Assembly: GCF_007970665.1 (NCBI RefSeq)
Contig: NZ_CP042430.1
Coordinates: 2,542,001-2,606,000, forward strand
From: Baekduia soli
Lineage (GTDB): Bacteria > Actinomycetota > Thermoleophilia > Solirubrobacterales > Solirubrobacteraceae
Length of the DNA stretch: 64,000 nt
Reading direction: 5' to 3'
Part shown: one piece after another, positions 6,519 to 40,340 of the stretch
Layout of the letters: every line of letters begins with the position of its first letter
Numbering within the stretch: the first letter of the stretch is position 1
Translations under genes and position numbers: made by a program
The notes under the pieces: generated by a model
What the model was told of the DNA's origin: nothing
Databases searched by the model: none
What the model saw: only the letters and a program-made list of their open reading frames with translations

Positions 6519-6524
6519 TCTAGC
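6519..6524. repeat. Target-site duplication TCTAGC (left copy)
   Basis: TCTAGC directly abuts the left inverted repeat of the IS481-family element and is repeated exactly at 7603-7608. IS481 elements are known to insert at NCTAGN and duplicate 6 bp, which this matches. Confidence 0.85.
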
Positions 6525-7488
6525 TGTTCTGCCTCAGGTCGTTCCGAACGCGGGTGATGGGCGGCCGGTTGCCGAGCGAGCTGTGGTTCCGCTCGTTGTT
6601 GTAGTGGTGCAGCCAGTGTGGCAGCGCTGCGGCTCTGGCGTCGCTTGAGCGGTAGCGCTGTCCCAGGCCCCATTCGCGTTTGAGGGTCTGCTGGTAGCGC
6701 TCGACCTTGCCGTTGTGGCGCGGCGTGCGGGGCGCGATCGTGCGATGCCGGATGCCGTGGCTGTCAAACAGGGCGGCCAGCGCCTTGTTGTGGGTGTAGG
6801 TCCAGGCGTTGTCGGTCTGCCAGCGCTCGATGATGATGCCGTGCGCAGCGAAGAACGCGATCGCCCGCTCGGTGAAGCCGATGACGGTGGCGGCCTTCTC
6901 GTCGCGGTGCAGCTCGGTGTAGGCCAGGCGGCTGTGGTCGTCGATCGCGCTGTGGGCGAACTCGTAGCCGACACGCTGGCGCTTCTCGGCGCCCGTGCGG
7001 TGACGGTTGCCGGTGACGGCATGGCCGGGTGAGGAGAACCGCGCGAAACGCTTGACGTCGTTTTGGATCAACGCCCCAGGGCACGGCCACTCAAAGCGCT
7101 GCACCGCCTCTCGGGGCGCCGGCGGCTGGCGCGACATGCCGCGCCGCTTCAGACAGCGCGAGACCGTCGCGTGCGCGATGCCGAGCTCGGAGGCGATCAG
7201 GCGCGGCCCCCAGCCCGTCCGCGTCCGCGCCTGGCAGACACGGTCGTGCAGCTCGTCGCTGGACCGCGTCGGCTGGCGATGCGGCGTCGAGGGTCGATCC
7301 TGCGCCCACGCGCCCGACGCTCGCTCGGCGTCTGAGGCGTTGCGGTACCGGTCGATCCAGTACTGCACCGTCGACACGCTCACCCGCCGACGGGCCGCTG
7401 CCTGGCGTCGAGGAAGTCCCTCGCCAAGACACCAATCAACCAGCTCGACACGCTGCCAGCTGGGCAGCCACCTACGCTTGCACTGCAT
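6520..7488 (-). CDS. IS481 family transposase
   Basis: 322 residues. An N-terminal helix-turn-helix (about residues 12-50, with the VSVSTVQYWIDRYR recognition helix) is followed by a second HTH-like region and then an rve/DDE integrase core. Visible acidic residues are the Asp of LIQNDVKRF, the Asp of WQTDNAWTY and the Glu of NGKVERYQQTLKREW; the C-terminus has the YNNERNHSSLGNRPP segment typical of this family. The last sense codon lies at the element's edge and the TAG stop is supplied by the duplicated target (TCTAGC). The start ATG is preceded by GGAGGT and lies inside a 13-bp stem (see separate entry). Confidence 0.93.
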   Translation of the reverse strand: MQCKRRWLPSWQRVELVDWCLGEGLPRRQAAARRRVSVSTVQYWIDRYRNASDAERASGAWAQDRPSTPHRQPTRSSDELHDRVCQARTRTGWGPRLIASELGIAHATVSRCLKRRGMSRQPPAPREAVQRFEWPCPGALIQNDVKRFARFSSPGHAVTGNRHRTGAEKRQRVGYEFAHSAIDDHSRLAYTELHRDEKAATVIGFTERAIAFFAAHGIIIERWQTDNAWTYTHNKALAALFDSHGIRHRTIAPRTPRHNGKVERYQQTLKREWGLGQRYRSSDARAAALPHWLHHYNNERNHSSLGNRPPITRVRNDLRQNS

Positions 7489-7602: not shown

Positions 7603-7608
7603 TCTAGC
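7603..7608. repeat. Target-site duplication TCTAGC (right copy)
   Basis: Exact copy of 6519-6524. It contains the TAG stop codon of the leftward CDF gene (7604-7606 on the complementary strand), so the insertion left that gene's reading frame intact. Confidence 0.85.
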
Positions 7609-8539
7609 CGCCTGAAGGCGGGCGACGTTCGATACGCAGGAGTTCGCCACCAACATGGTCGACCTGCAGCGTCGTGTGCTCGATGCCGTAGCGCTCGTGG
7701 ATCAGTTGCTCGAGCCGCCGGCGGGCAACGTGGCAATCACGATCCGAGGCGACCAGCACGTGGGCGGAGAGGGAGGGGAACCCGGAGCTGACTTCCCACA
7801 CGTGAAGGTCGTGGACCTCCACGATGTCCGGCTCGTGGGCCATCGCTTGGCCGATCGCGTCCGGATCGATGCCCTCGGGCGCTGCCTCGAGCAGGACCAG
7901 CGCCGCGGCTTTCGCCAGCGATGCCCCCATCCACAGCATCGGGACTGCGATCAACAGTGACGCGATCGCGTCGGCACGCTGGAAGCCGGTGAGCAGGATG
8001 ACTCCGGCGGCGGCCATCGTGCCCACCGAGGCATACGCGTCGGTGAGGTTGTGCAGCCAGGCCCCGCGCATGTTGAGTCCGCCGCTGGCCTTGCTCAGCA
8101 CGTACGCCGCGGCTCCGTTGACGCCGAGGCCGGCGAATCCGACCCACAGCACGAGCCAGGCCTGCACCTCGGGGGGCTGGGCGAGCCGGCGCACCCCCTC
8201 GTAGGCGATGAAGGCAGCGAGGATGACGAGCGTCACGCCGTTGACCAGCGCCGAGAGGATCTCCGCCCGCCGCCAGCCGAACGTCATTGATCCGCTGGGC
8301 CGACGCTGAGCGAGACGCGCGGCGACGATGGCCAGGCCGAGCGCGGCAACGTCGGTGAGCATGTGGGCGGCGTCGGAGAGGAGCGCCAGCGAGCCGGCGA
8401 TCGCGCCCACGACGACCTCGACGACCATGAACCCGGCGTTGATCGCCAGGGCGATCGCGAGCAGCCGGGAGTCGGCACCCTGTGGGACGGCATGGCTGTG
8501 GCCATGACCGCTCGACGGCTCGGGAGCGCGAGCACTCAT
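7604..8539 (-). CDS. Cation diffusion facilitator (CzcD/ZitB-like) zinc/divalent-metal exporter
   Basis: A 311-residue CDF protein. The N-terminus carries a short His cluster (GHGHSH). Six transmembrane spans follow, with metal-site motifs LLSDAAHMLTDV in helix 2 and LHNLTDAYASVG in helix 5 (H-x3-D), then a cytoplasmic C-terminal domain ending HTTLQVDHVGGELLRI with metal-dimer His residues. It expels Zn2+ (possibly Cd2+ or Co2+) in exchange for protons. It overlaps the upstream P-ATPase remnant by 4 bp (ATGA) and belongs to the SmtB-led metal operon reading leftward from 9.9 kb. The stop codon lies inside the IS481 target duplication. Confidence 0.92.
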   Translation of the reverse strand: MSARAPEPSSGHGHSHAVPQGADSRLLAIALAINAGFMVVEVVVGAIAGSLALLSDAAHMLTDVAALGLAIVAARLAQRRPSGSMTFGWRRAEILSALVNGVTLVILAAFIAYEGVRRLAQPPEVQAWLVLWVGFAGLGVNGAAAYVLSKASGGLNMRGAWLHNLTDAYASVGTMAAAGVILLTGFQRADAIASLLIAVPMLWMGASLAKAAALVLLEAAPEGIDPDAIGQAMAHEPDIVEVHDLHVWEVSSGFPSLSAHVLVASDRDCHVARRRLEQLIHERYGIEHTTLQVDHVGGELLRIERRPPSGG

Positions 8540-8748
8540 GCGGGAGGGCTTGAGCTCGGCGCGTACGGGGGAGCGCGCAGCAGCCGGACCGCGTTGAGGG
8601 TGGCCAGGAGCGACATGCCCGTGTCGCCGGCCCTGCCGAGCACGAGCGTCACCAGCCCGAGCGGGGCGAGCATCACGAGCAGGGCCTTGAGGGCGAGCGA
8701 CGCGGCCACGTTGGCGTCACGAGGAGCGCCGGAGGTCGCGGTGGTCAT
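8536..8748 (-). pseudogene. C-terminal remnant of a heavy-metal P1B-type ATPase
   Basis: A 70-residue frame with NVAASLALKALLVMLAPLG and GDTGMSLLATLNAVRLLR. This matches the last two transmembrane helices of ZntA/CadA-type ATPases (..LALKALFLVLAPLG..GASLLVTLNALRLL). All catalytic domains (DKTG, actuator, CPC) are absent, so it cannot pump. Its stop overlaps the CDF start in an ATGA junction, so it may persist because it keeps translation coupled. It is evidence that the metal operon once had a ZntA-like gene that was deleted. Confidence 0.7.
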
Positions 8749-8810
8749 CGCCCTACGGACAGACGAACCCGGCGTTGGAAGGCATGAGGGCGGCGTTCGC
8801 GGTGATCGGC

Positions 8811-9494
8811 TCATGCACCGGCGCGCACGGTGCGCCACGAGTCATAGGTGATCCGCAGGATGACCAGTGTGATGGCCAGGCCGATCAGGGGGTCGGCGAT
8901 CCTGAGGCCGAGCGCGACGACGGCCGCCGACGCGACGACGGCCAGCGAGACGTAGGCGTCGGCCCGGGCGTGCGCACCGTCGGCGATCAGCGCGGGGCTG
9001 TCCAGGCGCTTACCGGCACGCGTTCGGATGAGCGCCGCGGTCCAGTTGCCGACGAAGCCGACGACGCCGGCCGCGGCGAGGATGCCGAGGTGGTCGACCG
9101 CCTGCGGATGGATCAGCCGGGCCACGGCCTCGTACGCGGCCACACAGGCCGAGACGAAGATCGCCAGGACGACGAACAGGCCGGCATGGCGCTCGGCACG
9201 CGCCGAGCGGAGCGCGAACGCGATGCCGAGGGGGATGGCCGTGGCGGCGTCGCCGATGTTGTGGATGAGGTCGGCCAGGAGCGCGACGCTGCCCGACATC
9301 ACGAAGACGGCGATCTGAGCGGCGGCGGTGAGCCCCAGGACGATCAGCGCGACCGTAACGGCACGGATGCCGTCGCGGGAGCGCTTGATCGACTCGTCGA
9401 CCAGGCCGTGAGAATGGCCATGGCCATGCTCGTGACCCCCGTCGTGGTGATCGCCGTGCGCGGCGTGACCCTGGGCCTCGGAGTGGGTGCTCAT
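8811..9494 (-). CDS. CDF-family cation transporter lacking the C-terminal cytoplasmic domain
   Basis: 227 residues. A His-rich N-terminus (HGDHHDGGHEHGHGHSHG, residues 13-30) probably binds metal. Six spans follow, with ADLIHNIGDAATAI in helix 2 and ADGAHARADAYVSL in helix 5 supplying the H-x3-D metal site. The protein stops right after helix 6 (DPLIGLAITLVILR), so the usual 80-90-residue C-terminal dimerisation domain is missing. Some short CDF proteins are natural; alternatively the gene was truncated by the same deletion that removed most of the ATPase gene. It overlaps the repressor stop by 4 bp (ATGA) and is second in the metal operon. Confidence 0.88.
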   Translation of the reverse strand: MSTHSEAQGHAAHGDHHDGGHEHGHGHSHGLVDESIKRSRDGIRAVTVALIVLGLTAAAQIAVFVMSGSVALLADLIHNIGDAATAIPLGIAFALRSARAERHAGLFVVLAIFVSACVAAYEAVARLIHPQAVDHLGILAAAGVVGFVGNWTAALIRTRAGKRLDSPALIADGAHARADAYVSLAVVASAAVVALGLRIADPLIGLAITLVILRITYDSWRTVRAGA

Positions 9495-9868
9495 GACGGG
9501 TGCGCCGCTTCCATGTCGGCCGGCAGCGCGATGGTCGTCGGCGGGTGCACGTGCTCGTGGTGGTGGCGCATCGCCGTCAGGAGCTCGGGAAGGTGGTGAT
9601 CGTGCAAGCGGTAGAACGCGCGACGGCCGTCGCGCCGGACGCTGACCAGCCGCTGTTGGCGGAGCAGGCGCAGCTGGTGCGAGACCGCGCTCTGCTCCAT
9701 CCCGACCGCGGCGACCAGCTGCTCGACCGTGCGCTCGTGCTCGAGCAACGCCCAGAGCAGGCGCAGCCGGCTTGCCGAGCCGAAAGCGCGCATGGTCTCG
9801 GCGACGCGCTCGGCCTCGTCGCGGTCCAGCGGACGCTCGGCGGCACGGTGTTCTGAAGGATGCGGCAT
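9491..9868 (-). CDS. ArsR/SmtB-family metalloregulator
   Basis: A winged-helix repressor of about 125 residues. The recognition helix is in QSAVSHQLRLLRQQRLV and the beta-wing in VSVRRDGRRAFYRL. The last helix carries DHHLPELLTAMRHHHEHVH, a His/Asp-rich alpha5-type metal site as in CzrA/NmtR, so Zn2+, Ni2+ or Co2+ is the probable signal. I prefer ATG 9868 because a near-perfect palindrome, likely its operator, covers 9885-9900; starts at 9886 or 9904 are in frame but would place the operator inside the coding region. First gene of the metal-efflux operon. Confidence 0.88.
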   Translation of the reverse strand: MPHPSEHRAAERPLDRDEAERVAETMRAFGSASRLRLLWALLEHERTVEQLVAAVGMEQSAVSHQLRLLRQQRLVSVRRDGRRAFYRLHDHHLPELLTAMRHHHEHVHPPTTIALPADMEAAHPS

Positions 9869-9884
9869 CCGTCGCAGCCTACTC

Positions 9885-9900
9885 ATGAACACGTCTTCAT
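9885..9900. promoter_or_regulatory. Probable ArsR/SmtB operator
   Basis: ATGAACACGTCTTCAT is a 16-bp palindrome with one mismatched pair. TGAA...TTCA half-sites are the usual form for SmtB/CzrA-type repressors. It sits just upstream of the preferred repressor start, consistent with autoregulation of the metal operon. Confidence 0.55.
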
Positions 9901-9991
9901 GCATTGCGGGTAGGCGCGGATCTCGGTCGCGGCGATCGCGCTCGCTCCGGATGCGAGGCGCGCTGGTTGGGCGATACGGCTGTAGAAACTA

Positions 9992-10009
9992 CACAACCGT
10001 AAAGTTGTG
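9992..10009. promoter_or_regulatory. Inverted repeat CACAAC-N6-GTTGTG, likely operator of the thiol ArsR
   Basis: Perfect 6-bp arms with a 6-bp A/T-rich centre, 14 bp upstream of the ArsR start at 10024, in the divergent region between the metal and sulfur operons. A single GTTGTG half-site also lies upstream of the second thiol ArsR gene (16925-16930). Confidence 0.55.
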
Positions 10010-10023
10010 ATAGGCTCTGGCCC

Positions 10024-10380
10024 ATGAATCGCGATCCGTCGCTTCTCCACCCGCTTCCCGATCAGCTCATCGAGCTGGTCGCCTCGCGCTTTCGCGTCCT
10101 GGCCGAGCCGATGCGCATCAGGCTGCTCGACCGCCTCCGTGACGGTGACGCGACCGTCGGCGAGCTGCAGGAGGCGCTCGGCGCCTCGCAGCAGAACGTC
10201 TCGAAGCACCTCGGCGTCCTGTTGAACGCCGGGATGGTCGCCCGCGCAAAGCAGGGCACCTCGTCCGTCTACGCCATCGCCGATCCCGGCGTCTTCGAGC
10301 TCTGCGACCAGGTCTGCGGCGGGTTGCGCCGCCAGGTCTCCGAGCTCGACGCGATCCTCCAAGGAGGCAGAGCAGCATGA
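10024..10380 (+). CDS. ArsR-family repressor with C-x3-C thiol pair (probable persulfide/redox sensor)
   Basis: 118 residues. The helix-turn-helix is ASQQNVSKHLGVLLNAG (about 54-70) and the wing VARAKQGTSSVYAIAD. The only cysteines, C94 and C98, form FELCDQVCGG in the C-terminal helix; no His-rich metal site is present. As first gene of an operon with rhodanese, persulfide dioxygenase, TauE/SafE and OsmC, it probably senses sulfane sulfur or oxidants through this pair, as BigR/SqrR-class ArsR proteins do with differently placed cysteines. Its stop overlaps the next start (ATGA). A close paralogue with the same Cys pair lies at 16.6 kb. Confidence 0.88.
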   Translation: MNRDPSLLHPLPDQLIELVASRFRVLAEPMRIRLLDRLRDGDATVGELQEALGASQQNVSKHLGVLLNAGMVARAKQGTSSVYAIADPGVFELCDQVCGGLRRQVSELDAILQGGRAA

Positions 10381-10634
10381 CCCCGACTCGATCCTGCGTG
10401 CGTGAGACCGGCTGGCCGCTGGAGCGCGTGCTGTTCGCGATGGCCGGCACGGTCACGCTGCTCAGCGCGGTGCTGGCGGCGGTCGTCTCGCCGTGGTTTC
10501 TGCTGCTGACGGCGTTCGTCGGCGTCAACCAGTGGCTGTACGTCTCGCTCGGCGCCTGCCCGGCGTCGCTGATCCTCGGCCGCCTGTTCGGCCTGCGCTC
10601 GACCCTCTACGCCCGCAAGGAGGTCTCCCGATGA
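10377..10634 (+). CDS. DUF2892 (YgaP-like) membrane protein
   Basis: 85 residues with two adjacent hydrophobic helices (VLFAMAGTVTLLSAVLAAVV and the stretch after SPWFLLL), followed by LGACPASLIL, the CP-x-S segment typical of DUF2892. In several bacteria this domain is fused to or clustered with rhodanese domains, and its conserved Cys may handle sulfane sulfur at the membrane. Overlapping ATGA junctions on both sides show tight coupling in the sulfur operon. Confidence 0.82.
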   Translation: MTPTRSCVRETGWPLERVLFAMAGTVTLLSAVLAAVVSPWFLLLTAFVGVNQWLYVSLGACPASLILGRLFGLRSTLYARKEVSR

Positions 10635-12742
10635 CCACCACCTACGGTCCGATCGGCCGCCTGGGCCGCTACACCGCCACCCACTTCCGCACCGTCGCGC
10701 TCGGCTGGCTGCTGGTCGCCGTCGTGCTCGGCTTCTTCGCCCCGAAGGTCGAGAAGGCCCTGTCGGGCGCCGGCTGGGAGGCGACGGGCTCGGAGTCGGT
10801 CGCCGCCCGCAAGGCGATCGACCAGAACTTCCAGGGCCTCTCCTCGAGCGCCCTGATGGTCGTCGTGCACTCGCCGACGCAGACCACCAAGGATCCCGCC
10901 TTCCAGCGCGTGATCGCCTCCACGGAGGCGACGCTGAAGGCCGACCACCGCGTCAAGAACGTCGTCGCGCCCCGGCCGGGCACCTCGATCTCGCGCGACG
11001 GTCACACCGCCATCGTGCAGGCCGGCGCCGCCGCCGACGCCAACACCATGGTCCGCGCGGCCGATGACCTCAAGACCAAGCTGCATCGTCTGCAGGGCGA
11101 CGGCGTGCAGGTCTCGCTGACCGGCGCCAGCGGCATGTGGTCGGACTTCAACACCGCCAACCGTACGGCGATGATGAAGTCCGAGCTGTTCAGCTGGCCG
11201 GTCACGATGGTCATCCTCGTGCTCGCCTTCGGCTCGCTGGTGGCCGCCGGACTGCCGCTGATGCTGACGATCCTCGGCCTGATGGCCTCCGCCGGGACGC
11301 TCTACCTCGGCACCAAGGTGCTGGACATCTCGATCTGGGCGATGAACTTCGCGCTGATGTTCGCGCTGGCGCTGGGCATCGACTACGCGCTGTTCATCGT
11401 GATGCGCTTCCGCGCCGCGCTGTTCGGCACCCACGAGCCGGTGGAGGACGCGGTGGCCGAGACGATGGACACCGCCGGCAAGGCCGTGCTGTTCAGCGGC
11501 GTGACCGTGCTGATCTCGCTGACTGCCGTGATGCTCGTCCCCAGCCCGGCGTTCCGGTCGATGGCCCTGGGGATCATGATCGCCGTCATCTTCATCCTCG
11601 CGGCGACGATGACGCTGCTGCCCGCCGTGCTGGCCAAGCTCGGCCCCAAGGTCGACAACGTCTCGCTGCCGTGGGTCCATCAGGGCGAGCACCGCTCCGC
11701 GCGCTTCGCCGCCTGGGGTGAGCGGCTGTGGAAGCACCCGCTGGCCTTCGGCGCCATCGCCGTGGTCGTCCTGCTGGCGCTGGCCTTCCCCGTCCTGGGC
11801 CTGAAGACCGGGATGCCGTCGATCAAGGTCGTGCCGACCTCCGACAGCTCGCGCGTCGGCTACACCCAGGTCCAGCAGGCCTTCGGCAAGGGCGCCCCGG
11901 GCGCGATCCAGATCGCCACCACCCAGGCCGACGCGGCCAGGGTCACGGCGATCGCCAAGGCCGACCCGGGCATCGCCCGGGTCATGCCGGCGATGCCCGG
12001 GGCCGGCGGCGCCGCCCTGGTGCAGGCCGTCCCCGGCGCCGACCCGTCCTCCAAGGCGGTCGGCCGGACCATCGATCGCCTGCGCGGCGCGCTGCCGCAG
12101 GGCGCGCTGGTCGGCGGGTCGGTCGCCGAGAACCACGACCTCGAGACCCTGCTGTCGTCCAAGACCCCGCTGGTCATCGGCGTCGTGCTGATCCTCGGCT
12201 TCCTGCTGCTGCTCGTCGCGCTGCAGGCGCCGATCATCGCCGCGCTCGGCGTGGCCACCAACCTGCTGGCCACCGGCGCCGCCTTCGGGATCGCCCGGCT
12301 GATCTTCCAGGGCGGCCACGGCAGCGGGCTGCTGGGCTTCGAGCCCCAGGGCTTCCTGGACGCCTGGGGCCCGGTGTTCTTCTTCGCGATGATCTTCGCG
12401 ATCTCCATGGACTACACCGTGTTCCTGCTCTCCAGCGCCAAGGAGCACTGGGACCGCAGCCACGATCCCAAGGAGGCCATGGTCGGCGCCGTCGCCCACT
12501 CCGGGCGCGTCGTCTTCGCGGCCGCCGCGGTGATGGTGGCGGTGTTCTTCACCTTCGCCCTCAGCGGCCCGCTGCCGCCCAAGGAGATGGGCGTCATCCT
12601 CGGCGTCGCCGTGCTGCTCGACGCCTTCCTGGTCCGGCTGCTGCTCGTGCCGGTGCTCCTGCGCCTGCTGGGCAAGTGGGCCTGGTGGCTGCCCAAGCCC
12701 CTGGCCCGCATCCTGCCCGACGTCCGCTTCGGCCACGCCTGA
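10631..12742 (+). CDS. MMPL/RND-family transporter in the sulfur operon
   Basis: 703 residues. ATG 10631 follows a full AAGGAGG at 10617-10623 and overlaps the previous stop. Topology is RND-like: helix 1 near residues 20-40, a large extracytoplasmic domain (about 45-180), helices 2-6 with the proton-relay segment FALALGIDYALFIVMRFR, then a repeat with a second exterior loop and FAISMDYTVFLLSSAKE. MMPL proteins of actinobacteria export lipids or small hydrophobic molecules. Its place between DUF2892 and sulfur-transfer enzymes is unusual and suggests that it exports a sulfur-containing product or protects the membrane. A second MMPL gene lies at 38.1 kb. Confidence 0.9.
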   Translation: MTTTYGPIGRLGRYTATHFRTVALGWLLVAVVLGFFAPKVEKALSGAGWEATGSESVAARKAIDQNFQGLSSSALMVVVHSPTQTTKDPAFQRVIASTEATLKADHRVKNVVAPRPGTSISRDGHTAIVQAGAAADANTMVRAADDLKTKLHRLQGDGVQVSLTGASGMWSDFNTANRTAMMKSELFSWPVTMVILVLAFGSLVAAGLPLMLTILGLMASAGTLYLGTKVLDISIWAMNFALMFALALGIDYALFIVMRFRAALFGTHEPVEDAVAETMDTAGKAVLFSGVTVLISLTAVMLVPSPAFRSMALGIMIAVIFILAATMTLLPAVLAKLGPKVDNVSLPWVHQGEHRSARFAAWGERLWKHPLAFGAIAVVVLLALAFPVLGLKTGMPSIKVVPTSDSSRVGYTQVQQAFGKGAPGAIQIATTQADAARVTAIAKADPGIARVMPAMPGAGGAALVQAVPGADPSSKAVGRTIDRLRGALPQGALVGGSVAENHDLETLLSSKTPLVIGVVLILGFLLLLVALQAPIIAALGVATNLLATGAAFGIARLIFQGGHGSGLLGFEPQGFLDAWGPVFFFAMIFAISMDYTVFLLSSAKEHWDRSHDPKEAMVGAVAHSGRVVFAAAAVMVAVFFTFALSGPLPPKEMGVILGVAVLLDAFLVRLLLVPVLLRLLGKWAWWLPKPLARILPDVRFGHA

Positions 12743-12746
12743 GCCG

Positions 12747-13331
12747 ATGACCGGCAAGGACCCCAAGAAGTTCGACCCCGCCCGGGCGCACGTGCTGGAC
12801 GCGCCCGAGCGGGAGCGGTACCTGCCAACCGACGCGCTCGTCGCCCTGCTGGACCTGCAGGGCGACGAGATCGTCGTCGACTACGGCGCAGGCACCGGGC
12901 GGATCACGATCCCGGCCGCCCATCTGCTGCGCGACGGCGGCCGTGTCGTCGCCGTCGACAGCAGCGACGAGATGCTCGGCCACCTGCGTCTACGCACGAC
13001 GGGGAACCCGAACGTCACAGCTCTGCACGTCGCCGACGACGCCGTGCCGCTCCCCGACGCGAGCGTCGATCGGGTGATCGCCGTCAACCTCCTGCACGAG
13101 GTGCGCGGCGAGCGTGCCCTCGCCGAGATGCGACGGCTGCTCAAGCCCAGCGGGTTCACGCTCGTCGTGGATTGGGAGCGCGGCCGTCGCCGCGACATCG
13201 GGCCACCCGACGAGCTGCTCTACGACGCTGACGGAGCGTGCCGCGCGCTCGGCGTCGTCGGCCTGCGCGCGACCGTGGCGCCCATCGACCTGCCCTACCA
13301 CTTCGCCCTTCTCGCGATCCCCACCACCTAG
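12747..13331 (+). CDS. Class I SAM-dependent methyltransferase
   Basis: 194 residues. Motif I is VVDYGAGTGRITIPAA (about 43-58), the acidic loop is VVAVDSSDEML, motif III is DRVIAVNLLHEV, and LLKPSGFTLVVDWE is the post-motif strand. The substrate is unknown. It starts 4 bp after the MMPL stop and is followed by the rhodanese gene, so a thiol, selenol or other sulfur-related acceptor is plausible. Detoxification by S-methylation is an inference from context only. Confidence 0.85.
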   Translation: MTGKDPKKFDPARAHVLDAPERERYLPTDALVALLDLQGDEIVVDYGAGTGRITIPAAHLLRDGGRVVAVDSSDEMLGHLRLRTTGNPNVTALHVADDAVPLPDASVDRVIAVNLLHEVRGERALAEMRRLLKPSGFTLVVDWERGRRRDIGPPDELLYDADGACRALGVVGLRATVAPIDLPYHFALLAIPTT

Positions 13332-13343
13332 GAGCTCTTGTCC

Positions 13344-13664
13344 ATGTTCTTCTCCCGAACCCGTTCGATCACGCCCACCGAGGCGGTCGAGCGGCAGCGG
13401 ACCGGCGGCCTGGTGCTCGTCGACGTTCGCGAGGCCGCCGAGCTGCGCCAGGGGCGCATCGAGGGCGCCCGCAATATCCCCCTCGGCCAGCTCGGCGCAC
13501 AGCTCGGCGAGCTCGATTCCAGCAAGTCCGTCGCCTTCGTCTGCCAGTCGGGCATGCGCAGCGCCAGGGCGACGAAGGCCGCCGCCAAGGCGGGACTGGA
13601 TGCCGTCAACGTCAGCGGCGGCGTGACGGCCTGGTCCCGCGCCGGCCTGCCCCTCACCCGATAG
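13344..13664 (+). CDS. Single-domain rhodanese sulfurtransferase
   Basis: 106 residues. One rhodanese fold with the DVREAAELRQGRIEGARNIPL segment shared by the family and the active-site loop FVCQSGMRSA with catalytic Cys67. I start at ATG 13344, about 8 bp from AGGAGC; a TTG six bases upstream is also in frame. It transfers sulfane sulfur between thiosulfate or persulfides and acceptor thiols, and lies directly upstream of the persulfide dioxygenase fusion. Confidence 0.9.
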   Translation: MFFSRTRSITPTEAVERQRTGGLVLVDVREAAELRQGRIEGARNIPLGQLGAQLGELDSSKSVAFVCQSGMRSARATKAAAKAGLDAVNVSGGVTAWSRAGLPLTR

Positions 13665-13676
13665 GAGACCGGACCG

Positions 13677-15065
13677 ATGATCTTCCGGCAGATCACCCAC
13701 GACGACCTCGGGTGCGCCTCGTACCTGGTCGGCGACGAGGACGCGGGCGTTGCGGCCGTCGTCGATCCCAAGCTCGAGATCGAGGAGTACCTCGCGCTGG
13801 CCCGGTACATGGGCGTGCGGATCGAGCACATCCTCGAGACCCACAACCACGCCGATCACGTCTCGGGCCACGGCCGGCTGGCGGCGGCGACCGGCGCGAC
13901 GATCCACGTGCACCGCGATGCCGCGCCCGGCTACGACCACGAGGCCTTCGACGACGGCTGGGAGCTGGAGCTGGGCGCCGTGCGCGTGCGCGCGCTGCAC
14001 ACACCGGGCCACCGGCCCGAGCACACGGCGTTCGCGCTGATCGACACCGCGCGCGGCCCCGAGCCATGGGCGGTGCTCACCGGTGACACCTTGTTCGTCG
14101 GTGACATCGCGCGCCCCGACCTGGCCGTCGACAAGGAAGAGGGCGCGCACGACATGTTCGCCTCGCTGCGCGACAAGCTCCTCACGTTGCCCGGCGCGTG
14201 CGAGGTCTGGCCCGGCCATCTCGGCGGCTCGCTGTGCGGCGGCCCGGGGATGGACATGAAGATCTCCTCGACGATCGCCTATGAGCTGGCGCACAACGAG
14301 CTGCTGGCCGAGACCGATGAGAACGCGTTCGTGGAACGCGCGATCGCCACGCTGGCCCCGCAGCCCCCGAACTTCCAGGCGATCGTGGCGCTCAACCAGG
14401 GCCCGCTGCACAGCGGCCACGTCGACGTCGAGCCGCTCACCGCGCGACAGGTCGAGGTCAAGCAACTCACGGGCGCGCTCGTGGTCGACGTGCGCACCGA
14501 CCTGCAGTTCGATGACGCCCACATCCCCGGCGCGGTCTGCAACCCGGCGGTCCGCGCCGGCTTCGGCACGAAGCTCGCGTGGGTCGCCGACCGTGACCAC
14601 GAGGTGATCCTCGTCGGCCGCGACGACGACGACGCGATCCATGCCGCGCACCTCGCGGCCGCGGTGGGGATCACGGATCTCGGCGGCTACCTGGCCGGCG
14701 GCATGACGAGCTGGCGTGAGGAGAAGCGCCCGACCGAGGGCGTGGAGCGCATCGACGTGTCGGGCCTACGCGAGCGGATCGCCGACGTGCAGGTCCTCGA
14801 CGTGCGCGAGCAAGGTGAGTTCGAGGCCGGCCACCTCGCCGGTGCGGTCCACGCGGCCTACCACGACATCGACGGTGTCCCCGCGGGCTTGGACCCGGCG
14901 CGCCCGATCGCCGTGATCTGCTCCTCCGGCCAGCGCAGCGCGATCGCCGCCTCGCTGCTGCTGCGCGCCGGCGCGCAGCACGTCATCCACGTCGCCGACG
15001 GTGGCGTCGTCACCTGGCAACAGCAGGGCTGGCCGATCGAGCAACCGCAGTCCGCGGCACGCTAG
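13677..15065 (+). CDS. Persulfide dioxygenase-rhodanese fusion (CstB/ETHE1-like)
   Basis: 462 residues in three modules. Residues 1-240 form a metallo-beta-lactamase domain with THNHADH at 55-61, HTPGH and GDTLFVGDIARPDL, matching ETHE1/BlrB persulfide dioxygenases (mononuclear Fe). Residues about 255-355 form a rhodanese-like domain with no Cys in its active loop (LVGRDDDD), so it is structural. Residues about 365-455 form a second rhodanese with catalytic Cys415 (ICSSGQRS). Together these oxidise persulfides to sulfite and transfer sulfur, as in CstB. A good ribosome site (AGGAGAC) precedes the ATG. Next in the operon is a TauE/SafE exporter that could remove the sulfite. Confidence 0.92.
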   Translation: MIFRQITHDDLGCASYLVGDEDAGVAAVVDPKLEIEEYLALARYMGVRIEHILETHNHADHVSGHGRLAAATGATIHVHRDAAPGYDHEAFDDGWELELGAVRVRALHTPGHRPEHTAFALIDTARGPEPWAVLTGDTLFVGDIARPDLAVDKEEGAHDMFASLRDKLLTLPGACEVWPGHLGGSLCGGPGMDMKISSTIAYELAHNELLAETDENAFVERAIATLAPQPPNFQAIVALNQGPLHSGHVDVEPLTARQVEVKQLTGALVVDVRTDLQFDDAHIPGAVCNPAVRAGFGTKLAWVADRDHEVILVGRDDDDAIHAAHLAAAVGITDLGGYLAGGMTSWREEKRPTEGVERIDVSGLRERIADVQVLDVREQGEFEAGHLAGAVHAAYHDIDGVPAGLDPARPIAVICSSGQRSAIAASLLLRAGAQHVIHVADGGVVTWQQQGWPIEQPQSAAR

Positions 15066-15067
15066 GA

Positions 15068-15862
15068 ATGGCGGCGGCCGCCATCCCCTTCGGGCTGGCC
15101 ATCGGCCTGAGCCTCGGCATGCTCGGCGGCGGCGGCTCGGTCCTCGCCGTGCCGGTCCTGGTCTACGTCCTCGGCCAGAGCGTTCACGAAGCGACGACCA
15201 CGTCGCTGGTGGTCGTCACCGCCGGCGCCCTGGCCGGCGGGCTCGCGCACGCCCGCGAGGGTCGCGTCTGCTGGCGCCACGCCAGCGCGTTCACCGCCGC
15301 GGCGCTGCCCGGCGTCGTCGCAGGCACGGCGCTGGGCAACGCTGTCAGCGGCCGCGTGCTGATCGCGGCCTTCGCCGTGATCATGCTCGCCGCCGCGGCC
15401 GCCACCTGGCGCAAGGCCACCAAGGCCACATCGGCCGGCGACGCCGCGCCGGTCACGTCGAGCTGTCCGCCGCTGCGCCTCGGGCGCGACCTGGTCGCCG
15501 GCCTCCTCATCGGCACGATGACCGGCTTCTTCGGCGTCGGCGGCGGCTTTCTCATCGTCCCCACGCTGTCCATCGCGCTGGCGCTGTCCATGCGCCTGGC
15601 CGTCGGCACCTCGCTGGCGATCATCACCGCCACCTCGGTCATGGCCCTCGGCGCGCACCTGGTCGCCGGCCGCGGCCTCGACGCCGGCGTGACGACGACC
15701 ATGACGCTGGCCTGCGTGGCCGGCGCACTCGGCGGCGTGCGCTTGGCCGGACGCATCCCGCAGCGCCAACTTGGCCAGGGCTTCGCGGCGCTCGTCGTCC
15801 TCGTCGCCGGCTACCTCCTGATCTCCGCCGCCTTCCTCGGCGGCCCACCTGGCAGCTCCTGA
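15068..15862 (+). CDS. TauE/SafE-family sulfite/organosulfonate exporter
   Basis: 264 residues with about eight transmembrane spans and the two characteristic glycine-rich segments, GLSLGMLGGGGSVLAVPVLV near the N-terminus and GTMTGFFGVGGGFLIVPTL in the second half. It starts 2 bp after the stop of the persulfide dioxygenase. Export of sulfite formed by that enzyme is the natural reading, although family members also move sulfoacetate or taurine-derived sulfonates. Confidence 0.9.
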   Translation: MAAAAIPFGLAIGLSLGMLGGGGSVLAVPVLVYVLGQSVHEATTTSLVVVTAGALAGGLAHAREGRVCWRHASAFTAAALPGVVAGTALGNAVSGRVLIAAFAVIMLAAAAATWRKATKATSAGDAAPVTSSCPPLRLGRDLVAGLLIGTMTGFFGVGGGFLIVPTLSIALALSMRLAVGTSLAIITATSVMALGAHLVAGRGLDAGVTTTMTLACVAGALGGVRLAGRIPQRQLGQGFAALVVLVAGYLLISAAFLGGPPGSS

Positions 15863-15888
15863 CCCTCACGCCCGGAAGGACCGACATC

Positions 15889-16410
15889 ATGCACAACGTC
15901 AACGTCGAGGCTGTCGAGCAGACCGCCGCCAAGGCCCAGGCCGATCCGAGTGTCGTCGTCCAGCACGTCGTCTTCGACGGCGAGTGGCAGACGACCCCGG
16001 GCACGCCGCAGTTCCGCGCGACGATCCCGGTTCCCAACGGGGAGCCGGTCGTCTTCGAGGCCGACTTCCCGCCGCCGATGGGCGGCACCGGAGCGGCCCC
16101 CAACCCGTTGGCCTACTGTTTCTGGGGCGGCCTGGCCTGCTACGCCATGACCTACGCCCAGGAGGCCGCGCGCCGCGGCGTCGAGATCCGCGCGCTGCGC
16201 GCGCGGGTGGAGACCGACGTAGACCTCGGCCGCGCGCTGGGCGTCAGCGACCGGCCTCCCGTGCAGGGCATCGACTGGCACCTGGACGTCGACGCCGACG
16301 CCACGCCCGAGGTCCTGGACGAGCTCAAGGCCGCCGCCGACGAGCACTGCCCCGGGGCGTACTGCATTCGCAACCCGATCGAGCTGCGCACGCACGTCAC
16401 GCGGACCTGA
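15889..16410 (+). CDS. OsmC-family thiol peroxidase-like protein
   Basis: 173 residues. ATG 15889 follows GGAAGGA. OsmC features are the two peroxidatic/resolving cysteines, one in GGLACYAMTYAQEAARRG and one in DEHCPGAYCIRNPI. Proteins of this family reduce organic hydroperoxides or take part in persulfide handling. Last gene of the rightward sulfur operon; the opposite strand then carries another ArsR with an OsmC-like fragment. Confidence 0.87.
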   Translation: MHNVNVEAVEQTAAKAQADPSVVVQHVVFDGEWQTTPGTPQFRATIPVPNGEPVVFEADFPPPMGGTGAAPNPLAYCFWGGLACYAMTYAQEAARRGVEIRALRARVETDVDLGRALGVSDRPPVQGIDWHLDVDADATPEVLDELKAAADEHCPGAYCIRNPIELRTHVTRT

Positions 16411-16413
16411 GCG

Positions 16414-16546
16414 TCAGGCCGCGCGCTGTTCCGTGGTGGGTTCGACGGCCACCGGGACGTCAATCCCGGTGCGGGCTGTGGGTGACGATGCAGAAGTCCT
16501 CGAACAGCTCCAGGCAGCGCGGCATGCGTGGCTCGGGCTTGTCCAT
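16414..16546 (-). pseudogene. Frameshifted C-terminal fragment of an OsmC-family protein
   Basis: ATG 16546 opens MDKPEPRMPRCLELFEDFCI, which resembles the C-terminal region of OsmC proteins (PRCLxxFEDFCxVTQSV). The frame stops at 16460 after THSPHRD. A one-base shift continues as TGIDVPVAVEPTTEQRAA to a stop at 16414, completing the expected ending. It lies 20 bp downstream of the second thiol ArsR gene. It could be a once-functional small gene broken by one indel. Confidence 0.5.
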
Positions 16547-16565
16547 GGCCGCACCACGTCTCGGC

Positions 16566-16910
16566 TCAGGCGACGTCGAGGAGCTGCTGAAACTCGGCCA
16601 GCTGGGCGCGCAGACCGCCGCAGACCTGCTCGCACAGGGCGAACACGGAGTCGTCGGCGATCGCATAGCGGACCGCGGTGCCCTGCTTCGTGCGGCTGAC
16701 GATCCCTGCCTGGTGTAGGACACCCAGATGCTTCGACACGTTCTGCTGCGACGCGCCGAGTGCCTCCCGCAACTCGCTGACATTCGCTGGACCCTCGCGC
16801 AGGCGGTCGAGCACCTTGATCCGCATCGGCTCGCCGATGACCCGGAAGCGCTGCGCGATGAGCTCGACCAGCGGATCGGGAAGGGGAGAGGGGAGGGCCA
16901 TGGCATTCAC
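16566..16910 (-). CDS. ArsR-family repressor with C-x3-C thiol pair (second paralogue)
   Basis: 114 residues, very similar to the ArsR at 10.0 kb: PMRIKVLDRLREG, the identical recognition core ASQQNVSKHLGVL and ALCEQVCGGL with C93 and C97. A start at the second Met (16901) is equally possible. It probably senses the same class of thiol stress. Two such paralogues flank the sulfur operon (one at its head, one convergent with its end), so cross-regulation is possible. A GTTGTG half-site, as in the first operator, lies at 16925-16930. Confidence 0.87.
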   Translation of the reverse strand: MNAMALPSPLPDPLVELIAQRFRVIGEPMRIKVLDRLREGPANVSELREALGASQQNVSKHLGVLHQAGIVSRTKQGTAVRYAIADDSVFALCEQVCGGLRAQLAEFQQLLDVA

Positions 16911-17051
16911 TGTACGCGGTTGGAGTTGTGCGTCCTCCCTTCGAGAAGCCGCGCTCGGTCCGGCCTCCGACGATGGGCGGAGGTCGAGGACATCAAGATC
17001 TGGTTTGCGCCCTCGCCCGCGAAGATCGCTCCGACCATGGCGAGCGTCTGG

Positions 17052-38117: not shown

Positions 38118-40340
38118 GTGACCGACCTGGTGGTCCGGCTGCGATGGGTCGTCGTGTGTGGGTGGATTCTGGCCGCGGTCGCCGCGGTCCGTCTGCTGCC
38201 GGCGATCGAGGATGCCCACTCGGGGGCGCTCGGAGCGCTCGTGCCCCGCGACGCCGCCGCCGTCAAGGCCGAGATCGCCTCCAAGACCCGGTTCGGCTTC
38301 CCGCTGCTCTCTCGGACGCTGATCGTCCAGCGGGACCCGCGAGGGCTCTCGGCGGCCGAGCAGGCCGCGGTCGTCGAGCGCGCGGTGCGGCTCAACCGCC
38401 ACGCGGTTCCCGGGTTCGAACGCATCGCGGCCGCGCTTCCGGTGACCAACGCCATCGGTTCCGCGCCGTTCGTCCGCGAGCGCGGGACGACGGCGATCAC
38501 ATACCTGTTCTTCGCCCCCGACGTCGACGTCGGAGACCGTGCCGACCTCGCCCGCCGCTTCGTCGAGGAGCACGTGCCGGCGACGCCCACCGGGACCGTG
38601 GGCGTGACCGGGCAGGCTGCGGCTGCCGGCGAGCAGTCCGACCTGGTGGCCCGGTGGCTGCCCGTGATCGAGTTGGCCACGATCGCGCTCGTCGCCATGG
38701 CCGTCGGTGCGCGATTCATGGCCGTCGGGGCGCCGCTGCTCACGCTGGCGACGGTGGCGATCGCGTACCTCATCTCGAACCACATCGCCGCCTGGGTCGG
38801 ACAGCGGCTGGGCTTCGTCGTGCCGCGCGAGGTCGAGCCGATCATGGTCGTGCTGCTCTTCGGCGTGGTCACCGACTACTCGATCTTCTACCTGTCGCGG
38901 TTCCGTGCCCTGCTCGCCGACGGGCTTCCGCGGATGTCCGCCGCCCGGGCCACGACCCGGCAGATGTCGCCGATCATCTTCGCCGCCGGCATCACGGTGA
39001 TCGCCGCCACGGCCACGCTCATGGCCGCGCAGCTGGACTTCCTGCGCGTGTTCGGCCCGGGGCTGGCGCTGTCGGTCCTGGTCGCTCTGGTGGTGTCGGT
39101 CACGCTCGTGCCGGCGACCCTGGCCATCGTCGGCCGCGCGCTGTTCTGGCCCCGCCGGCCCCAGGTCGAGCTGAGCGTCGACGAGGCCGCCGAGGAGACG
39201 CCGACCGAGCAGGTCGGGCGTGCCCGCCGGTCGCGCGCGGTGCGGCTGGCCTGCGAACGACCGTGGACGGCGGTCGCCGGGTGCGTGCTCCTGCTGGCCG
39301 TCGCCTCGGCCGGGCTGGTCAACCTCCGGCTCGCCAACCCTGTCGTCCGCGGGCTCCCGCCCGGCAACCCGGTGCGCGAGGCCTACGCGCAGGCGGCCAA
39401 GGGCTTCACGCCGGGCATGCTCTCGCCCACCGTGCTCGTCCTGTCCGGGCACGACGTCGCCGCGCAGCGTCACGGGCTGGCCCAGCTGCAGCGTGAGCTC
39501 GCACGCCAGCCCGGGGTGGCGTTGGTGCTCGGCCCGGCCCTCCGGCCTCCGGTCGGCGGCCTGCGGCTGGGGGCGACCGTCTCGCGGGACGGCGACGCGG
39601 CGCGCTACTTCATCGTCATGACCGACGACCCTCTCGGGGCCGCGGCGATCGACGCCCTGCGACGGATACGAGAACGCGTCCCCGGCCTGGTCTCCGCGGC
39701 CGGCCTGACCCACGTCCAGGCATCGATGGCCGGGGACACCGCGCTGTCGGCCGAGACCATCGACAAGACGCTCGGAGATCTCGAGCGCATCGCCCCCATG
39801 ACCCTGCTCGTGATCCTGCTGGTCCTGTCGGTCTATCTCCGCGCCCTGGTCGCGCCGCTGTACCTGATCGCGGCCAGCGTCCTGGGCTTCGCCGCGGCGA
39901 TGGGCATCGGTGCGCTGATCTTCGGGCAGCTGACCTACTACGTGCCGTTCGCGGTGGCCGTCCTGCTCGTGTCCCTGGGCTCGGACTACAACGTGTTCCT
40001 CGTCGGGCGCATGTGGCAGGAGGCCCAGGTGCGCCCGCTGGCCGAGGCGATCCCGGTGGCGGCGTCGCGGGCGGCGAAGGCGATCACGCTGGCCGGCGCG
40101 GTGCTCGCGGGCTCCTTCGCGCTCATCGGCCTGGTGCCCGTCAGCGCCTTCCGCGAGATCGCCGTGCTCATGACCGTCGGCCTGCTCATCGACGCGCTGC
40201 TGCTCCGGACCATCCTGGTCCCGGCCCTGGTGACGATCGTCGGCGCCCGCAGCGGCTGGCCGGGAGGGCGGCTGTCGGATACGGCTCCGGGCGCGGGCCT
40301 GGTCCCGGTGGCGCCCGAGAAGGTCGCCGGAGGTGGGTGA
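38118..40340 (+). CDS. MMPL-family (RND) transporter
   Basis: 740 residues from GTG 38118, 4 bp after the previous stop. RND-type topology with two exterior loops; the proton-relay segment is VLLFGVVTDYSIFYLSRFR in the first half and VSLGSDYNVFLVGRMW in the second. It probably exports lipids or hydrophobic compounds. Its stop overlaps the DUF2254 start by 8 bp. Confidence 0.9.
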   Translation: MTDLVVRLRWVVVCGWILAAVAAVRLLPAIEDAHSGALGALVPRDAAAVKAEIASKTRFGFPLLSRTLIVQRDPRGLSAAEQAAVVERAVRLNRHAVPGFERIAAALPVTNAIGSAPFVRERGTTAITYLFFAPDVDVGDRADLARRFVEEHVPATPTGTVGVTGQAAAAGEQSDLVARWLPVIELATIALVAMAVGARFMAVGAPLLTLATVAIAYLISNHIAAWVGQRLGFVVPREVEPIMVVLLFGVVTDYSIFYLSRFRALLADGLPRMSAARATTRQMSPIIFAAGITVIAATATLMAAQLDFLRVFGPGLALSVLVALVVSVTLVPATLAIVGRALFWPRRPQVELSVDEAAEETPTEQVGRARRSRAVRLACERPWTAVAGCVLLLAVASAGLVNLRLANPVVRGLPPGNPVREAYAQAAKGFTPGMLSPTVLVLSGHDVAAQRHGLAQLQRELARQPGVALVLGPALRPPVGGLRLGATVSRDGDAARYFIVMTDDPLGAAAIDALRRIRERVPGLVSAAGLTHVQASMAGDTALSAETIDKTLGDLERIAPMTLLVILLVLSVYLRALVAPLYLIAASVLGFAAAMGIGALIFGQLTYYVPFAVAVLLVSLGSDYNVFLVGRMWQEAQVRPLAEAIPVAASRAAKAITLAGAVLAGSFALIGLVPVSAFREIAVLMTVGLLIDALLLRTILVPALVTIVGARSGWPGGRLSDTAPGAGLVPVAPEKVAGGG

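What the first reader, a model, noticed from the sequence alone, without database searches (positions are those of the whole stretch)
10024..16410. Persulfide operon with an MMPL exporter and DUF2892 protein built in
The order is thiol ArsR, DUF2892, MMPL, methyltransferase, rhodanese, persulfide dioxygenase-rhodanese fusion, TauE/SafE, OsmC, with most junctions overlapping or under 15 bp. The MMPL and methyltransferase are not usual parts of a sulfide-oxidation operon. They could export a methylated or otherwise modified sulfur product.
Basis: inference. Interest (0 to 1): 0.55.

Follow-up and report, generated by a model that had tools for sequence, protein, structure and literature searches.

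The report
Persulfide operon with Cys-free MMPL transporter
An actinobacterium carries a tightly packed operon that looks built to sense and remove toxic sulfur compounds, and it includes a membrane pump of the lipid-transporter type whose close relatives stand beside such sulfur genes in several other actinobacterial lineages and on plasmids.

Summary
The eight-gene operon is real: six of seven junctions overlap or lie within 12 bp. Its PDO is a full-length CstB-type enzyme.

The MMPL is no chance insertion. Among 100 related MMPL loci, 67 have such an ArsR and 67 the DUF2892 within 3 kb, against 0 of 37 paralogous MMPL loci; rhodanese, PDO, TauE or OsmC are near in 16 against 0. Of five Rhodococcus plasmid regions read, four carry MMPL with DUF302, TauE, PDO and a dithiol CstR-like regulator.

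The ArsR keeps C94 and C98 in 67 of 67 rows, the DUF2892 one Cys in 69 of 69, and 96 of 103 MMPLs have no Cys. The core of the promoter palindrome CACAAC-N6-GTTGTG occurs exactly once in the genome.

The methyltransferase is the true insertion: near 0 of 100 related MMPLs, though some relatives sit in other sulfur clusters. Export of a methylated product by the MMPL is thus poorly supported. Most likely this is a persulfide-response operon whose MMPL handles a hydrophobic thiol-reactive species; the substrate is unproven.

The parts
9992..10009 (.). operator candidate CACAACCGTAAAGTTGTG, 14 bp before the ArsR start
   Evidence: exact palindrome; its core ACAACN6GTTGT is the only exact copy in the 5.2-Mb genome; 56 of 69 upstream regions of such ArsRs have the core with at most 1 mismatch, 0.1 per set in base shuffles
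10024..10380 (+). ArsR-family repressor with C94-x3-C98 as its only cysteines
   Evidence: PF01022/PF12840 over cut-off; both Cys kept in 67 of 67 rows; nearest solved relative Rv0081, 6jmi
10377..10634 (+). DUF2892 / YgaP-TM-like small protein with GxCPAS motif (C61)
   Evidence: PF11127 below cut-off; C61 kept in 69 of 69 rows
10631..12742 (+). MMPL (RND superfamily) transporter, 703 aa, no cysteine, MmpL3-like fold
   Evidence: PF03176 238 bits; model pLDDT 83.4, best match MmpL3 7n6b TM 0.82/0.76; D251-Y252 and D594-Y595 invariant in 22 sequences
12747..13331 (+). class I SAM-dependent methyltransferase, candidate sulfide or thiol S-methyltransferase; an insertion between MMPL and rhodanese
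   Evidence: PF13649/PF08241; model pLDDT 93.9, best match 3dh0 TM 0.87/0.90; contexts of relatives
13338..13664 (+). single-domain rhodanese with CQSGMRS loop (ATG at 13344 possible)
   Evidence: PF00581 65 bits
13677..15065 (+). CstB-type (type III) persulfide dioxygenase: MBL, pseudo-rhodanese, rhodanese (CSSGQRS)
   Evidence: near full-length matches to 3tp9 (7.5e-54) and 3r2u (7.1e-53); that 3r2u is S. aureus CstB is recalled
15068..15862 (+). TauE/SafE sulfite exporter
   Evidence: PF01925 149 bits
15889..16410 (+). OsmC-family protein
   Evidence: PF02566 49.5 bits; the window's OsmC finds a relative within 3 kb of the MMPL in L039, L059, L060 and L097
16566..16910 (-). second ArsR of the same kind (CEQVCGG), convergent with the operon; role unclear
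   Evidence: PF01022; no such palindrome in its own upstream region (row win2)

Best explanation
A persulfide (sulfane-sulfur) sensing and removal operon. The ArsR represses the operon from CACAAC-N6-GTTGTG until persulfide or polysulfide modifies or links C94 and C98 (inferred). The rhodaneses and the CstB-type dioxygenase then turn low-molecular persulfide into sulfite, and TauE exports the sulfite (by family, not shown here). The DUF2892 protein, with one invariant cysteine, and the cysteine-free MMPL pump form a membrane arm that most likely collects and expels a hydrophobic thiol-reactive species that the cytoplasmic enzyme cannot reach, such as polysulfanes, S8 or sulfur-modified lipid (inferred, weak). 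OsmC removes related peroxides or persulfides (inferred). The methyltransferase, gained at this locus, probably S-methylates sulfide or thiols to volatile products that need no pump (inferred). Confidence: persulfide-response operon with MMPL-DUF2892 as a regular partner about 0.75; thiol S-methylation about 0.5; substrate of the MMPL about 0.25. The figure below is for the whole without the exact MMPL substrate.
For: CstB-type PDO over nearly its full length; rhodanese and TauE over cut-off. ArsR 67/100 and DUF2892 67/100 beside related MMPLs, 0/37 beside paralogs. Rhod, PDO, TauE or OsmC by window-only queries 16/100 against 0/37, p 0.006; in the same 14 genomes 5/14 against 0/37, p 0.0009. 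Linkage to Rhod, PDO or TauE within 3 kb needs at least 11 changes on the MMPL tree. Plasmids: CsoR-type regulator and DUF302 7/7, DUF2892 5/7, TauE and PDO 4/7 of the regions read; the regulators have two Cys and Gly where CsoR has its copper His (that ligand position is recalled). Nocardioides loci carry the same kind (6 of 8 checked). In L041 a pyridine-nucleotide disulfide reductase with a rhodanese domain overlaps the MMPL. Invariant Cys in ArsR and DUF2892. MMPL free of Cys in 96/103, against 7/23 paralogs. Operator. Methyltransferase relatives with a sulfur marker 10/29 against 0/37; Rubrobacter radiotolerans plasmid: TauE, sulfur transferase, methyltransferase, MBL, FAD oxidoreductase.
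Against: 75 of 100 related MMPL loci showed no sulfur partner within 3 kb even with the wider query set, and 20 of 100 neither ArsR nor DUF2892, so the MMPL may work away from a PDO; some of these loci are cut short by contig ends. Of six other genomes of the genus, only one (G002) showed the MMPL at E 1e-100, in two pieces with a stop. The OsmC (12), CoADR (1) and DUF4395 (1) counts of the wider set use queries taken from the loci themselves. Loci are related and a few are near-copies, so the Fisher p values flatter. Five of the ten methyltransferase loci rest on OsmC alone, found at 24-28 percent identity, though three of these OsmCs pass Pfam. The ArsR lacks the two-site Cys pattern of BigR/SqrR/YgaV. 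Cys loss may be one inherited trait, and 7 of 23 paralogs also have none. Metal-resistance genes lie near several of these loci. No biochemical evidence exists here.
Confidence: 0.68

Rival explanations
1. The MMPL is an envelope-lipid or drug transporter that is merely co-induced by thiol stress to repair or rebuild the membrane; it moves no sulfur compound.
For: Closest folds are MmpL3, MmpL4 and MmpL5 (lipid transport for MmpL3 from the entry titles, the rest recalled); no sulfur enzyme was found beside it in 75 of 100 relatives.
Against: Repeated linkage to PDO, rhodanese and TauE across lineages and plasmids; regulators of two-cysteine types; Cys-free protein.
Confidence: 0.3
2. One reading: the MMPL exports a methylated or otherwise modified sulfur product made by the methyltransferase.
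For: The two genes are adjacent, 4 bp apart.
Against: Methyltransferase near 0 of 100 related MMPLs; no MMPL of this kind near the 29 methyltransferase relatives (only L189 has an MMPL hit, a 32 percent paralog); methylated sulfides are volatile and diffuse (general knowledge).
Confidence: 0.07
3. A metal or metalloid module: the CxxxC ArsR senses a soft metal, and the sulfur genes handle the thiol damage or supply sulfide.
For: Two cation-efflux genes and another ArsR lie just upstream in the window; cadmium transporter and P-type ATPase near the pREL1 cluster, alkylmercury lyase on Nocardia pNF2.
Against: No metal pump inside the cassette; where the regulator is swapped it is a dithiol CstR-like protein without the copper His; PDO and TauE are sulfane-sulfur genes.
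Confidence: 0.15
4. Chance neighbours in a mobile island (an rve integrase lies at 6520-7488).
For: Integrase and metal-efflux genes nearby; G002 apart, no genus-mate of six showed the MMPL at E 1e-100.
Against: Overlapping genes, one operator, same gene sets in distant genomes.
Confidence: 0.04

Closest known systems
Streptomyces coelicolor sulfane-sulfur circuit (ScCsoR, type III PDO, TauE, rhodanese; PMC7533328, passages seen)
   Same: PDO with rhodanese domain, rhodanese, TauE, one thiol-sensing repressor
   Different: CsoR-like regulator with ATACC-N6-GGTAT site instead of ArsR with CACAAC-N6-GTTGTG; the paper's main text holds neither the word MMPL nor methyltransferase
Arthrobacter plasmid SUL module (PMC6305408, passages seen)
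   Same: sulfur dioxygenase, rhodaneses, TauE, small hypothetical protein, plus a transporter; CsoR and DUF302 as on the Rhodococcus plasmids
   Different: its transporter is MFS; the paper's MMPL belongs to another module, EFX
S. aureus cst operon (CstR, TauE, CstA, CstB, SQR; recalled, and search listings)
   Same: CstB-type PDO and TauE
   Different: no MMPL, no ArsR; CstR instead; has SQR (recalled)
bigR operon of Xylella and Agrobacterium (PMC5823870, passages seen)
   Same: winged-helix repressor over a PDO and TauE
   Different: BigR senses with Cys42 and Cys108; Blh is DUF442-ETHE1; no MMPL in the passages seen
E. coli ygaVP (PMC9774250, passages seen)
   Same: ArsR-type repressor followed by a YgaP-type protein
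   Different: YgaV uses Cys31 and Cys98; YgaP is a rhodanese-like enzyme, the window's small protein has no rhodanese domain
MddM1/MddM2/MddH H2S and MeSH methyltransferases (PMC12904073: abstract, first of three parts of Results, Discussion)
   Same: SAM-dependent enzymes; MddM1 and MddM2 of about 200 aa, found in Actinomycetota
   Different: sequence relation to the window's enzyme could not be tested

Membership tests
CstB-type (type III) persulfide dioxygenase | MBL plus pseudo-rhodanese plus rhodanese in one chain | tested here: met
   first rhodanese loop without Cys, second CSSGQRS (sequence)
CstB-type (type III) persulfide dioxygenase | persulfide dioxygenase activity | not testable with these tools
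   needs enzyme assay
BigR/SqrR/YgaV persulfide sensors | one Cys in the N-terminal half and one in the C-terminal helix (Cys42/108, Cys31/98) | tested here: not met
   only C94 and C98 (sequence); NCBIfam BigR model 36.7 bits, cut-off 155
ArsR/SmtB family | family profile over cut-off | tested here: met
   NF033788 80.3 bits, cut-off 55
MMPL family (PF03176) | profile over cut-off, MmpL-type fold, two Asp-Tyr pairs | tested here: met
   238 bits; MmpL3-like fold; pairs invariant in 22; their role in proton relay is recalled
MmpL3 trehalose monomycolate exporter | NCBIfam equivalog cut-off | tested here: not met
   217.3 bits, cut-off 1400
YgaP-like TM (PF11127, DUF2892) | Pfam gathering score | tested here: not met
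   20.1 bits, cut-off 25.3; genes beside plasmid MMPLs are annotated so
MddM1/MddH S-methyltransferases | sequence clade with tested enzymes | not testable with these tools
   their sequences were not at hand
MddM1/MddH S-methyltransferases | methylation of H2S or MeSH | not testable with these tools
   needs enzyme assay
ArsM arsenite methyltransferase | family cut-off and conserved cysteines | tested here: not met
   NF008823 41.5 bits, cut-off 263; no Cys among invariant or 90-percent columns of 26 sequences
S. coelicolor sulfane-sulfur circuit | CsoR-like regulator | tested here: not met
   the window has ArsR; related plasmid and Nocardioides loci have CstR-like regulators

The most novel reading that the evidence does not exclude
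A cysteine-free MMPL/RND pump, together with a one-cysteine YgaP-like membrane protein, is a dedicated exporter of hydrophobic sulfane sulfur (polysulfanes, S8 or persulfidated lipid): a membrane arm of persulfide defence widespread in Actinomycetota and carried on plasmids, under either of two unrelated two-cysteine repressors.
Probability: 0.25. Interest if true: 0.75.

Novelty: new variant of a known kind. Interest (0 to 1): 0.5.

Why it matters
Persulfide defence is described as oxidation to sulfite plus sulfite export. A recurring MMPL-DUF2892 pair in these clusters would add a transport arm, give a non-lipid role to part of the MmpL family, and explain a plasmid-borne gene set in Rhodococcus that annotation leaves unnamed. 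The regulator and its single, sharp operator make the idea easy to test.

Tried and rejected
Rejected: chance insertion of the MMPL. Poorly supported: MMPL as exporter of the methyltransferase product. Considered and not met: BigR-type sensor, MmpL3 proper, ArsM.

One search repeats the counts with the right frame: window-only OsmC 4 of 100 instead of 1, any of four markers 16 of 100 instead of 13, matched genomes 5 of 14 instead of 3; the wider set stays at 25 of 100.

Led nowhere: mycothiol status of the genome (best 261.7 bits under a cut-off of 485, perhaps a cysteinyl-tRNA synthetase relative; the same search rings in E. coli). Identity of the methyltransferase with MddM1/MddM2 could not be tested, the sequences not being at hand. 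No palindrome of this kind was found before the second ArsR. The promoter scan found no sigma-70-type site in 9900-16950. Literature: searches listed no title or abstract start on an MMPL in a persulfide cluster (listed 1 of 1, 11 of 11, 4 of 4, 12 of 23, 15 of 51); of these papers, passages were seen in PMC6305408, PMC7533328, PMC5823870 and PMC9918477, the others not opened; the library lacks most subscription papers.
Full report
What is there. The eight genes stand as described. MMPL starts at ATG 10631, overlapping the DUF2892 stop; the longer GTG frame from 10493 is only an open frame. The methyltransferase lies 4 bp behind the MMPL and 6 or 12 bp before the rhodanese. The PDO matches 3tp9 and 3r2u over nearly its whole length, has the ETHxHxDH, PGH and GD motifs of ETHE1-like enzymes (sequence; motifs recalled) and two rhodanese stretches, the first without an active-site Cys: a CstB-type enzyme. 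No SQR is among the eight genes.

The MMPL in relatives. Close MMPLs occur in 26 of 61 genomes of the relatives set at E up to 1e-100, the own genome included, and in a scan of named genomes (80 best loci kept). The loci used are 63-82 percent identical, mostly Solirubrobacterales and other Thermoleophilia, also Nocardioides, Kitasatospora and Acidimicrobiaceae. After seven loci held twice were dropped (matched by contig name and length; at least one near-copy, L123, stayed in), 100 loci were compared with 37 paralogous MMPL loci (40 fetched; 25-36 percent identical to the window's MMPL) from 14 of the same genomes. Within 3 kb: ArsR of this kind 67 against 0; DUF2892 67 against 0; both 54 of 100, neither 20 of 100; rhodanese 9, PDO 10, TauE 9 of 100, none in controls. 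OsmC by the window's own protein 4 of 100, by a wider set partly cut from the loci 12 of 100, none in controls. Any of the four by window-only queries: 16 of 100 against 0 of 37, p 0.006; in the matched 14 genomes 5 of 14 against 0 of 37, p 0.0009. By the wider set 25 of 100 against 0 of 37, partly circular. So most loci show no sulfur partner nearby. In L041 a disulfide reductase with a rhodanese domain overlaps the MMPL and in L058 a DUF4395 gene follows it.

Independence. In a FastTree of 115 rows the related MMPLs form one group of 107 with full local support against eight paralogs (the program warns of long branches among the paralogs). Linkage to PDO, Rhod or TauE needs at least 12 changes (18 of 107 rows, wider distance) or 11 (17 of 107, within 3 kb); linkage to OsmC at least 7 (13 of 107, the window counted). 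Gain and loss cannot be told apart. The MMPL of the one genus-mate that has the operon (L062) is not the nearest relative of the window's.

Plasmids. tblastn finds 44 plasmid records, 41 of Rhodococcus, 2 of Nocardia, 1 of Tsukamurella, about 59-61 percent identical in the 30 rows shown. Of seven MMPL regions read (five Rhodococcus), all have a metal-sensitive (CsoR-type) regulator and DUF302, five a DUF2892 or YgaP-like gene, four (all Rhodococcus) TauE and an MBL protein. The regulators have two Cys and Gly at the place of the copper-binding His: six by pattern, Tsukamurella by eye. Six of eight Nocardioides loci checked carry the same type somewhere in the fetched stretch; Kitasatospora did not show it. 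So an ArsR with two Cys in one lineage is replaced by a CstR-like protein with two Cys in another, which argues that both answer to the same kind of signal. That is inference.

Sensor and operator. Among rows aligned to the ArsR, C94 and C98 are kept in 67 of 67, and among DUF2892 rows C61 in 69 of 69 (best hit per locus, window rows included, one or two rows gapped there). Upstream of such ArsRs, ACAAC-N6-GTTGT is exact in 33 of 69 regions and has at most one mismatch in 56 of 69; base-shuffled regions give 0.1 per set. In the window it lies at 9992-10009. It is the only exact copy of that core in the genome, so the regulon may be this operon alone. With two mismatches allowed in CACAAC-N6-GTTGTG the window has two further sites; 9 of 100 shuffles reach three matches in all, so these two may be chance. 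The region before the second ArsR has no such palindrome.

MMPL protein. It has no Cys. Of 103 related MMPLs with more than 600 aligned residues 96 have none and none has more than one; of 23 such paralogs 7 have none and the most is four. This fits a cargo that reacts with thiols, but shared descent could also explain it. The predicted fold (pLDDT 83.4) is nearest MmpL3 and MmpL5. D251-Y252 and D594-Y595 are invariant in 22 sequences.

Methyltransferase. It is found within 3 kb of none of the 100 related MMPLs and of 1 of 37 controls; weak hits (31-32 percent) lie about 6.5 kb off in L047 and L139. In six loci the rhodanese follows the MMPL directly (L062 0 bp, L055 2 bp, L052 90 bp by start codon; L098 about 6, L159 about 36, L100 about 112 by alignment). 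Its relatives (21 of 299 genomes of the class at 1e-20; 10 of 396 of the phylum at 1e-25; both include the own genome) were read at 29 loci. Ten have a rhodanese, TauE, PDO, OsmC or DUF2892 within 3 kb by queries not cut from those loci, 19 if CstR-like hits count, against 0 of 37. Five of the ten rest on OsmC at 24-28 percent identity and fall away when each place is given to its best query only (5 of 29), but the OsmCs of L183, L184 and L186 pass the Pfam cut-off. Of the nine loci with CstR-like hits only, five have Lys at the His place, and four (L190, L233-L235) were not caught by the pattern; L233 lies beside a P-type ATPase with copper-type motifs (by eye), so these four may be ordinary copper regulators. 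Clear cases: L172, same family: a PF03601 (YeiH-type) gene, rhodanese, methyltransferase, then ArsR on the other strand, DUF2892, OsmC, rhodanese; Rubrobacter radiotolerans plasmid with TauE, sulfur transferase, methyltransferase, MBL, FAD oxidoreductase. The fold is an ordinary class I one, nearest 3dh0, whose title gives no function. No Cys is conserved, so ArsM-like chemistry is unlikely. H2S and MeSH methyltransferases are known in Actinomycetota (PMC12904073), which makes S-methylation the simplest guess; the sequences could not be compared.

Mechanism and limits. Shown: anatomy, recurrence, conserved cysteines, operator-like palindrome, domain make-up. Inferred: persulfide as the signal, release of the ArsR, roles of PDO and TauE by family, a membrane role for DUF2892 and MMPL, thiol methylation. 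The MMPL substrate is open; metal or xenobiotic stress remains a rival because metal-resistance genes lie near the operon here and on plasmids.

Known relatives. The nearest described systems seen are the S. coelicolor circuit and the Arthrobacter SUL module. The latter has an MFS transporter where the plasmids here have an MMPL. Library searches for MMPL with persulfide, rhodanese, TauE, CsoR, ArsR or DUF302 showed no title or abstract start on this pairing; the library lacks most subscription papers.

Noticed in passing
window 7604-9904: Two cation-efflux (CDF) genes with their own ArsR, divergent from the persulfide operon; metal and sulfur modules side by side.
   Followed up: partly
window 6520-7488: rve-type integrase or transposase next to the metal and sulfur modules, suggesting a mobile island.
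   Followed up: no
L064 (own genome, C1 about 2683060-2685156): A second copy of the MMPL, 76 percent identical, followed by another OsmC gene and grouped with Paraconexibacter in the tree.
   Followed up: partly
L174-L176, L179, L185: CsoR-like regulator with Lys in place of the copper His near a methyltransferase of this kind; in L174 a DUF362 gene follows.
   Followed up: partly
L062 (G002, same genus): The operon without methyltransferase; its MMPL frame is broken by a TAG or an assembly fault.
   Followed up: no
window 38118-40340: A further MMPL gene (PF03176), outside the operon.
   Followed up: no
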